Positions 6,801-8,295 of a stretch of DNA of 64,000 nucleotides are shown here, piece by piece. Where the stretch lies: positions 825,501 through 889,500 of the forward strand of contig JAQGDQ010000003.1 of NCBI GenBank assembly GCA_030141605.1. The letters run 5' to 3'. Within the stretch, counting starts at the first letter, position 1; the number at the start of each line of letters is the position of its first letter. The notes beneath the pieces are model-generated. The model saw only the letters and a program-made list of their open reading frames with translations, did not search any database and had not been told where the DNA came from. This stretch comes from Tubiluchus corallicola (taxonomy: Eukaryota; Priapulida; Priapulimorpha; Priapulimorphida; Tubiluchidae). Both the position numbers and the translations under genes were made by a program.

Positions 6801-8295
6801 AGATAAAGTTAAATTACATTTTTACCTAAAATATACAAGTGTATATTGATTGCAGTTTAATTTCATTATAAAACACAGATGTTAGTGTACTAATTTAAAT
6901 AGTAGATATAGCTAATACAGCTGTCTGCTTATATGCTTTTGGTAGTTATATGCTGACAGTTTGTTTGGCCCACCCAGTTTGCTGCTGCTCATAATTTTAC
7001 CTTGGCTGATAAGTAACCTTTTTCTATCAGACTGCTTATCTGTAGAATTTACAGTTAAGTTGTTTCTTTATTAGTTGCAAGTTCACTTTTTTCCAGAAGA
7101 ACAACAGATACCTCTTAACACTAGCAAATTTTGCAAGAATTCTATTTTTCTCTTTTTCGTACATTGGATGCCTCTTATTTTTCTTTTCGAACATCTGTGT
7201 GCAGTACATACACTTAAGCAGAGAATAAGGCAACTGCTGGATTATGTCGTAATAAACACTCTGGTTGTTTCTGAACCCCAGTGTATATGGGTTAATCATG
7301 TTCTTTTTGTATTATACAGGTTTGACATTAGACTGATGAAAGAAGGAAAAATGAAAGGCCAAGCTTTTATCACTTTAGTGGATGACAAGAAAGCTGGCAA
7401 AGCACGGCATGATACTAATGGATTTGCACTACATGGAAAACCTATAGTAGTTGTATCCTTTCTTGCAATACAATAATATTGTGCATGTTGTGCATGTTTG
7501 ATATGAAATTCCAAAATCAGTTGTTTTCAGAATCCTCTTGAGTTATGGTTTCAAGCAAGTACTGAGCATGCTTGTTTGTTTTCTGTGTATGTCACTTTCC
7601 TACATTATAAAGATATTTGTCCATTGCACCACTTGGCTTCTGGGAGACAATCTAGAGGCCAGTAGAGGAGAGGTGTCTTCATGGAATTACATCAGTTAAA
7701 GGCAGTAAGAATGGATTCATTGAGACTTGGACATTGCATGTTTAAAAGCTTGTGCAATTCCGATATTCCCTGTAGTTTAGCCAGCGGCCATAGGATGCCC
7801 CAGCATTTGTGGTGTGCTGCAGAGTTCTTGATCGAGCAGATATTATAATCTAGTAGAGAGCACATGCATTCGGCTGTCTTTTCATCTAATGTCTAGCTAG
7901 CAACTAAGATGGAAAGTTACTAGGCTATTTAATTCTAGTTACAGTTACGTCTACATTAATAGATGATGCACGAGTCATATCTCCACTATTATGCTTTGTT
8001 ACATGGCCATTGCTAACAGTTAATTGTGCTGTATTGTTTTTTCAGTAACACACTTTTTGTAATTTTGCTTTACTTTACATAGCACTGCACAGAATGTTAA
8101 ACATAGTGATAGACAATTCAAATACGTAGTGACAGGAATACTAGCACAGTTCTGTGTAGTTGTTTTAGTAAAATTTTGCAGTGCTGTATTACAAATTCAA
8201 TGTATGATATTCTCCTTAATGTTCTTGTTCAGCAATTTGCCAGGTCAGCACGACCTAAGGAAGATCCAAAGGATACCAACAAGAAGAGTACATGA
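751..8295 (+). CDS. RNPC3: U11/U12 small nuclear ribonucleoprotein 65 kDa protein (RNPC3), 3' part, 8 exons
   Basis: RNPC3 bridges U11 and U12 snRNAs in the minor (U12-type) spliceosome; its C-terminal RRM binds the U12 stem-loop. Eight exons (751-819, 2843-2994, 3199-3437, 4925-5095, 5670-5764, 6414-6472, 7320-7452, 8233-8295) join without a frame break into 326 residues plus TGA. The order matches the family: a VLHLMNKMNLPAPFG segment, an acidic stretch, a basic KRPIRRPQKR patch, DVFD, GGFGQF, FISQKELHDGRMS, then the RRM with RNP2-like RLYLKNL and RNP1-like KGQAFITL, ending QFARSARPKEDPK. The N-terminal RRM is outside the window on the left. Its last intron is of U12 type (see that entry). 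Identification is very secure; the exact end of the first exon (weak donor gtactt) is the least certain boundary. Confidence 0.95.
1172..1370. repeat. compound trinucleotide microsatellite (ATT)n/(ACT)n
   Basis: About 200 bases of TTA/ATT units with a central block of ACT units (about 1277-1347), inside the RNPC3 intron 820-2842. It creates long open frames of poly-Tyr and poly-Leu that are not genes. The rest of that intron is AT-rich without recognisable features. Confidence 0.97.
2843..2994 (+). CDS. RNPC3: RNPC3 exon, acidic linker
   Basis: Acceptor tctttag ends at 2842 and donor gtgagc begins at 2995; the exon ends two bases into a Lys codon. It encodes a Ser/Glu/Asp-rich, presumably disordered linker (for example SSSEEGSELESDEESKSQ), as in other RNPC3 proteins. 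Confidence 0.88.
3199..3437 (+). CDS. RNPC3: RNPC3 exon, basic patch and DVFD segment
   Basis: Follows tttcag and ends before gtaagt with one base of a split Ser codon. It encodes a dense basic patch (KRPIRRPQKRISKRLK), which may serve nuclear import or RNA contact, then a DVFD motif and a KKLEIKV strand that have counterparts in vertebrate RNPC3. Confidence 0.92.
4281..4617. mobile_element. small GTAC-rich inverted-repeat element (hAT-like MITE, degraded)
   Basis: Left end CAAGGTTGGCAGTACGGTAC and right end, reverse-complemented, CAAGGATGACAGCATGGTAC match at 16 of 20 positions. The interior is full of GTAC and CGTAC motifs. Flanking 8-mers CCCAGCAG and CCCAGAGC share only the first five bases, so the target duplication is decayed or uncertain. 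No coding capacity; lies in the RNPC3 intron 3438-4924. Confidence 0.55.
4925..5095 (+). CDS. RNPC3: RNPC3 exon, GGFGQF and ISQKELHDGRMS segment
   Basis: Acceptor ttttag at 4919-4924, donor gtaagc at 5096. It encodes an Ala/Glu-rich start, the GGFGQFAPLP motif, an acidic stretch and EFISQKELHDGRMSPD, the conserved lead-in to the C-terminal RRM. Phase 1 at both sides of the exon is consistent with its neighbours. Confidence 0.92.
5670..5764 (+). CDS. RNPC3: RNPC3 exon, start of C-terminal RRM (RNP2)
   Basis: Acceptor ttcacacag, donor gtaagt. It encodes MKHLSVFKNYDPGDPTNRLY and LKNLAKQVEEK: the N-terminal extension of the RRM, beta-1 with the RNP2-like LYLKNL, and the start of helix 1. It ends exactly on a codon boundary inside helix 1. 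Confidence 0.95.
5891..5980 (+). other. possible in-frame cassette exon inside the RNPC3 RRM
   Basis: A 90-base stretch between ttctgacag and gtatgt is open in the RNPC3 frame for exactly 30 codons (starts IDVTLTRGYERTEF) and is phase 0 at both ends. It lies between the exon ending VEEK and the exon starting DLRYIYG. Other RNPC3 proteins have no insert here and it would split RRM helix 1, so I treat it as an alternative or chance exon, not part of the main product. Confidence 0.35.
6414..6472 (+). CDS. RNPC3: RNPC3 exon, RRM helix 1 to beta-2
   Basis: Acceptor attgcag, donor gtaagt. It encodes DLRYIYGRYVDFSVELEKD and two bases of the Met codon completed by the next exon. DLRYIYGRYVDFS is near-identical in pattern to the family consensus. 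Confidence 0.95.
7320..7452 (+). CDS. RNPC3: RNPC3 exon, RRM RNP1 to beta-4
   Basis: Acceptor tatacag, then FDIRLMKEGKMKGQAFITL (RNP1 region), helix 2 and GFALHGKPIVV. The donor at 7453 is GTATCCTTTC, a U12-type 5' splice site, not a U2-type one. The exon ends in phase 0. Confidence 0.95.
7453..8232 (+). other. U12-type (minor spliceosome) intron in RNPC3
   Basis: The 5' splice site is GTATCCTTTC, matching the U12 consensus RTATCCTTT. The 3' end carries TCCTTAAT at 8213-8220, matching the U12 branch-site consensus TTCCTTRAY, with the branch adenosine about 13 bases before the acceptor AG at 8231-8232. Both diagnostic elements and their spacing fit a GT-AG U12-type intron. No other intron of the three genes shows this pair. 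Confidence 0.88.
8233..8295 (+). CDS. RNPC3: RNPC3 terminal coding exon
   Basis: Starts after gttcag and encodes QFARSARPKEDPKDTNKKST followed by TGA (8293-8295). QFARSARPK.DPK is the conserved RNPC3 C-terminus, which fixes the splice junction to the previous exon (KPIVV joined to QFARS). Confidence 0.95.
   Translation, partial: QFARSARPKEDPKDTNKKST

What the first reader, a model, noticed from the sequence alone, without database searches (positions are those of the whole stretch)
7453..8232. The gene for a minor-spliceosome protein carries a U12-type intron
The intron splitting KPIVV from QFARS in RNPC3 has a 5' splice site GTATCCTTTC and a branch site TCCTTAAT about 13 bases before its AG, both diagnostic of U12-type introns. 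RNPC3 is itself a U11/U12 di-snRNP component, so its last coding exon should only be joined when the minor spliceosome works. Vertebrate RNPC3 and SNRNP48 are known to be autoregulated through U12-type 5' splice-site elements (USSE). This lineage may use, or may retain as an ancestral precursor, an actual U12 intron at the 3' end of the gene. I saw no tandem second donor nearby, so it is not a USSE as described.
Basis: partly seen in the sequence, partly recalled or inferred. Interest (0 to 1): 0.72.

Follow-up and report, generated by a model that had tools for sequence, protein, structure and literature searches.

The report
Minor-spliceosome gene needing its own spliceosome
In this genome the last coding intron of RNPC3, a gene for part of the rare 'minor' splicing machine, carries the signals that this machine reads, so the machine is probably needed to make one of its own parts; this looks real but is of a known kind.

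Summary
The intron at 7453-8232 joins ...HGKPIVV to QFARSARPK... in an RNPC3 (U11/U12-65K) gene, with donor GTATCCTTTC and branch site TCCTTAAT, branch A 13 nt from the AG. In 74 kb, 1 of 4419 plus-strand GTs matches GTATCCTTT and 2 of 4289 AGs have such a branch site at that distance; both signals sit on the one junction, of 221 GT-AG pairs tried, that gives the human-like KPIVVQFARS. The genome has U11, U12, U4atac and U6atac genes, and both control genes examined (SPCS2, SPCS3) carry AT-AC minor introns. So it is very probably a genuine U12-type intron. It is not a USSE: no tandem donor was found, and SNRNP48 here appears intronless in its coding region, without a tandem site nearby. Retention would end the protein after KPIVV-VSFLAIQ, losing the tail that the human disease allele R502X also removes. 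Reduced minor splicing should then reduce 65K further, a positive loop opposite in sign to USSE; this is inferred and no RNA was seen. That it is a USSE precursor is untested and weakened, because USSE is reported in plants as well as animals. RNPC3 has already been called a minor-intron gene in print, though which intron I could not learn. New member of a known kind.

The parts
751..819 (+). RNPC3 coding exon (VLHLMNKMNLPAPFGAVTPTPDL)
2843..2994 (+). RNPC3 coding exon, acidic region
   Evidence: frame and splice edges, (the start 2851 used was wrong)
3199..3437 (+). RNPC3 coding exon
4925..5095 (+). RNPC3 coding exon
5670..5764 (+). RNPC3 coding exon, start of RRM2 (MKHLSVFKNYDPGDPTNRLYLKNLAKQVEEK)
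6414..6472 (+). RNPC3 coding exon (DLRYIYGRYVDFSVELEKDM)
7320..7452 (+). RNPC3 penultimate coding exon, ends KPIVV
7453..8232 (+). U12-type intron, 780 nt, phase 0, GT-AG
7453..7462 (+). U12-type 5' splice site GTATCCTTTC; positions +5 to +9 can pair with the 5' end of this genome's U11 (AAAAAGGG)
   Evidence: pairing read by eye
7474..7476 (+). first in-frame stop (TAA) if the intron is retained: KPIVV-VSFLAIQ*
8213..8220 (+). U12-type branch site TCCTTAAT, branch A 13 nt from the intron's last base
   Evidence: U12 snRNA with GUAAGGA
8233..8295 (+). last coding exon QFARSARPKEDPKDTNKKST and TGA
8565..8570 (+). only AATAAA between the stop and 9000, possible poly(A) signal

Best explanation
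The intron 7453-8232 is a genuine U12-type (minor) intron of the RNPC3 gene. U11 pairs with the donor and U12 with the branch site, and the minor spliceosome removes it to join the final 20 codons of the U11/U12-65K protein. The product is a bridge of that same U11/U12 complex, so full-length 65K depends on minor splicing that already works. If the intron is retained, translation stops 7 codons into it and the protein loses its conserved C-terminal tail. Low minor-spliceosome activity would then lower 65K further (positive, self-reinforcing dependence). Shown from sequence: signals, frame, snRNA genes, stop codon. Inferred: actual splicing, retention, feedback. Most likely it is an ordinary retained minor intron rather than one evolved as a sensor.
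For: Exact donor and branch motifs at the 1 of 221 GT-AG pairs that gives the human-like KPIVVQFARS. Rarity of each motif at a splice dinucleotide: 1 of 4419 GTs and 2 of 4289 AGs. U12 105.9 bits and U11 101.7 bits with intact pairing ends; U4atac 86 bits; U6atac 112.4 and 74 bits. Two of two control genes, SPCS2 and SPCS3, have ATATCCTTT donors and TTCTTTAAC / TTTCCTTAAC branch sites before AC acceptors that give human-like junctions. A DNA search found RNPC3's 3' end once in the genome. The donors of the six preceding introns read in the window are U2-like: GTACTT, GTGAGC, GTAAGT, GTAAGC, GTAAGT, GTAAGT.
Against: No RNA data. Conservation of the intron in other species could not be tested (no relatives held). 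A free-register U11 duplex energy did not single out the donor: 594 of 4419 GTs scored as low or lower. The branch site ends in T where the consensus has C. Three donors 3 or 6 nt apart (7447, 7450, 7453) keep the frame to the same acceptor; only homology and the motif choose 7453. Phase 0 is less used by minor introns (recalled).
Confidence: 0.9

Rival explanations
1. The intron is a regulatory sensor: its slow, activity-dependent removal has been kept by selection to couple 65K supply to minor-spliceosome activity, in place of the USSE circuit that SNRNP48 seems to lack here.
For: Last position in the CDS, stop 7 codons into the intron. SNRNP48 has one open frame over the part that matches human 48K (E 4.7e-31) and no tandem RTATCCTT within 40 nt from -6 to +8 kb. 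SRSF10 shows that a minor intron can act as an activity switch (PMC7244321, passages).
Against: The sign is positive, a poor homeostat. No alternative isoform, no conservation data, no RNA. Hundreds of human genes carry minor introns without such a role being known (about 700, PMC5473595).
Confidence: 0.15
2. It is a major (U2-type) intron whose ends resemble U12 signals by chance.
For: GT-AG ends; 76% pyrimidine at -20 to -4, within the range (59-76%) of the acceptors compared (where one of the seven acceptors was placed 8 bases too far downstream).
Against: Both motifs at one intron by chance is about 1e-7 from the counts, if independent; TCC at +4 to +6 is a poor U1 match (recalled rule).
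Confidence: 0.03
3. It is a remnant or precursor of the vertebrate RNPC3 USSE.
For: Both lie near the 3' end of RNPC3 and use U12-type donor motifs (PMC5473595; PMC8329584).
Against: Here the site is single and sits at a coding exon edge as a donor; USSE is a tandem, non-coding, unspliced enhancer. The USSE circuit is reported in plants too (PMC3584512).
Confidence: 0.05

Closest known systems
U12-type (minor) GT-AG introns
   Same: Donor, branch site, branch-to-AG distance, presence of the four minor snRNA genes
   Different: Nothing in the signals; the host gene encodes part of the machine that removes it
USSE in vertebrate RNPC3 and SNRNP48
   Same: U11-binding type of motif in the same gene, near the 3' end
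   Different: USSE is a tandem repeat in non-coding sequence, not used as a donor, and gives negative feedback; here one donor at a coding exon edge, and positive dependence
RNPC3 as a minor-intron-containing gene (mammals)
   Same: Same gene said to carry a minor intron (PMC6865273, passage)
   Different: The passage does not say which intron; positions could not be compared
Drosophila dUrp (ZRSR2 homologue) U12 twintron
   Same: U12-type intron in a minor-spliceosome factor gene (PMC3584512, passages)
   Different: dUrp is a twintron said to target AS-NMD; here a plain single intron

Membership tests
U12-type intron | Donor RTATCCTTT | tested here: met
   GTATCCTTTC at 7453, 0 mismatches over 9
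U12-type intron | Branch site close to TTCCTTAAC | tested here: met
   TCCTTAAT at 8213, last base T instead of C
U12-type intron | Short branch-to-3' splice site distance | tested here: met
   13 nt; the 9-21 nt range used is my own choice
U12-type intron | Genome encodes U11, U12, U4atac, U6atac | tested here: met
U12-type intron | Removal restores a conserved reading frame | tested here: met
   KPIVV|QFARSARPK as in human 3egn
U12-type intron | Removed by the minor spliceosome in cells | not testable with these tools
   no RNA data
U12-type intron | Same intron type at this site in other species | not testable with these tools
   no relatives held
USSE | Tandem U12-type donors | tested here: not met
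   no pair within 60 nt, up to 1 mismatch, plus strand 1-12000; RNPC3 upstream of the window not scanned for pairs
USSE | Motif in non-coding sequence, not used as donor | tested here: not met
   motif sits at a coding exon edge where splicing gives the conserved protein; use as a donor inferred
USSE | Partner element in SNRNP48 | tested here: not met
   one open frame over the matched part; no tandem within 40 nt from -6 to +8 kb on the sense strand

The most novel reading that the evidence does not exclude
In this lineage the negative USSE circuit on SNRNP48 and RNPC3 is gone (intronless SNRNP48 coding region, no tandem site found in RNPC3) and 65K supply instead hangs on a U12 intron in RNPC3 itself, a positive, switch-like loop in which minor splicing licenses its own bridge protein.
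Probability: 0.12. Interest if true: 0.65.

Novelty: new member of a known kind. Interest (0 to 1): 0.34.

Why it matters
If spliced as the signals say, a core minor-spliceosome gene cannot give its full protein unless the minor spliceosome already works. That is a simple natural test of how a machine that helps make itself keeps going, and of whether the USSE feedback is dispensable in some animals. As an intron it is ordinary.

Tried and rejected
USSE reading: rejected, no tandem donor in window 1-12000, none within 40 nt around SNRNP48. Genome-wide, tandem TATCCTT pairs with 1-25 nt between are not enriched: 222+195 against 246+275 for the reversed pattern (only the first places were listed, and I did not look at them one by one).

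U11 duplex energy as a score: dropped, not register-bound, 594 of 4419 GTs as low or lower. In that call the donor coordinate was off by one or two bases in five of ten intron rows, and the acceptor by one base in six; the finding's own row was right. In one search the exon at 2851 was started 8 bases too late, so the first exon was out of frame with the rest; one search mends this (2843).

A score with a full published U12 weight matrix was not made; exact-consensus counts were used instead.

Second RNPC3 copy as a comparison: none found, one match in the genome. Organism: no COX1 match, not identified. Intron conservation: no relatives held. A search for four other minor-spliceosome genes did not complete, so whether they carry U12 introns here is unknown. 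Pfam RRM_1 matches the stretch 7075-7473 only below its cut-off (15.4 bits); the identity rests.

Searches of print for RNPC3 carrying a minor intron or being autoregulated by one; of the passages I saw, only PMC6865273 says that RNPC3 is a minor-intron gene. Verbeeren 2010 and Niemela 2015 are not held; what they found is taken from later papers. Papers seen: PMC5473595 (Introduction whole, first parts of Results and Discussion, passages); all the others as passages only.

Full report
What is there. The window lies in a 343.5 Mb eukaryote genome of 2344 contigs (G000:C1915:825501-889500). RNPC3 starts about 6.6 kb upstream of the window (first ATG of the matched frame at L010:3379) and ends at 8295. 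The protein piece joined from the RRM2 exons matches human RBM40/65K in the PDB at E 1.4e-42, with KPIVVQFARSARPKEDPKD against KPMVVQFARSARPKQDPKE. The intron 7453-8232 falls between KPIVV and QFARS, phase 0, and the eight window exons then read in one open frame to TGA at 8293-8295. Of 221 GT-AG pairs around the junction, 9 keep the frame and 1 gives KPIVVQFARS.

Signals. The donor is GTATCCTTTC. On the plus strand of the 74 kb made of L010 and the window, 1 of 4419 GTs matches GTATCCTTT with no mismatch, and 7 match with one. The branch site TCCTTAAT lies with its A 13 nt from the end of the AG; 2 of 4289 AGs have TCCTTRAY at 9-21 nt, the other at 13204, which I did not examine. If independent, the two together are expected at about 1e-7 per intron. 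Against this, RTATCCTT alone is no commoner in the window than in shuffles (3 against 4.6) and TCCTTRAY likewise (5 against 9.8), so the weight comes from position. A free-register U11 duplex energy did not discriminate (594 of 4419 GTs as low or lower). The donors of the six preceding introns read in the window are U2-like.

Machinery and controls. The genome gave one U12 match (105.9 bits) and one U11 match (101.7 bits), with the branch-pairing GUAAGGA and the 5' end AAAAAGGG intact, one U4atac (86 bits) and two U6atac matches (112.4 and 74 bits). As controls I looked at two genes whose human forms are reported as defective transcripts in RNPC3 patients, SPCS2 and SPCS3 (PMC3958305, abstract and passages). 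Both have an AT-AC minor intron. In SPCS2 the donor ATATCCTTT leads to TTCTTTAACATTTGCAC, the one acceptor of those tried that gave a junction like the human one (CVISYF). In SPCS3 ATATCCTTT leads to TTTCCTTAACTAACCATAC, giving ADLTSLFNW; two other acceptors kept the frame label but gave a stop (an AG) or extra residues (an AC). So canonical minor introns exist in this genome. These two controls are AT-AC, the finding GT-AG.

Not a USSE. USSE is a tandem repeat of U12-type donors in non-coding sequence that is not spliced but activates an upstream U2 3' splice site and gives unproductive mRNA (PMC5473595, Introduction read whole; PMC8329584, passages). No pair of RTATCCTT, one mismatch allowed, lies within 60 nt on the plus strand of 1-12000. 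SNRNP48, the other USSE gene, is here a single open frame over the part that matches the human 48K chain (query residues 32-325, E 4.7e-31), with no tandem site within 40 nt from -6 kb to +8 kb. Introns in its UTRs or at its very 5' end cannot be excluded.

How it would work (inferred). 65K bridges U11 and U12 snRNPs (PMC5473595). If intron 7453-8232 stays in, translation adds VSFLAIQ and stops at 7474, replacing the tail QFARSARPK.... In humans the stop R502X, four residues into that tail by my recalled numbering, deletes the conserved last residues and, together with P474T, was found in sisters with growth-hormone deficiency and U11/U12 di-snRNP defects (PMC3958305). So a fall in minor splicing should lower functional 65K and lower minor splicing further. 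That is positive dependence, the reverse of USSE's negative feedback. Nothing here shows that cells use it for control.

Novelty. [quoted passage not shown] A U12 twintron in the Drosophila ZRSR2 homologue is another case (PMC3584512, passages). My searches of print turned up no description of a U12 intron at this codon boundary in what I saw, but most subscription papers are not in the library. The precursor idea is weakened, since the USSE circuit is said to exist in plants as well as animals and to be absent in Diptera.

Verdict. Observation confirmed; U12 type about 95% likely by signals, 0.9 with the dependence; a regulatory role unproven.

Noticed in passing
window 5891-5981 (+): A 91-nt stretch with acceptor-like and CAG|GTATGT donor edges between RNPC3 exons 5670-5764 and 6414-6472; inclusion would shift the frame and end in TGA at the start of exon 7320-7452, as a poison exon would. 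Could be chance.
   Followed up: partly
L005:1294-2463 (G000:C1677): SNRNP48 (U11-48K) is one open frame of about 380 codons with no sign of coding introns, unlike the human gene, whose USSE poison exon needs introns.
   Followed up: yes
L014 and L012/L013: 10 kb of contig C1338 is 100% identical, reversed, to C1677 around SNRNP48: the assembly holds duplicated stretches.
   Followed up: partly
L016 and L017: Two U6atac matches, 112.4 and 74 bits; the weaker may be a variant or a pseudogene.
   Followed up: no
window 15589-17660 (-): Prominin gene on the minus strand downstream of RNPC3: clear at 17193-17660 (PF05478, E 6.7e-15), weak at 15589-15975 (E 0.029, below cut-off).
   Followed up: partly
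window 1190-1370: Long run of TTA/ATT and ACT trinucleotide repeats inside an RNPC3 intron.
   Followed up: no
L001/L006 and L002/L003: Two loci with pairs of U11-48K-like CHHC fingers some 500-600 bases apart, GTSF1-like by arrangement (recalled); L002 also holds a tandem repeat whose one frame reads ERRYKLGVF.
   Followed up: no
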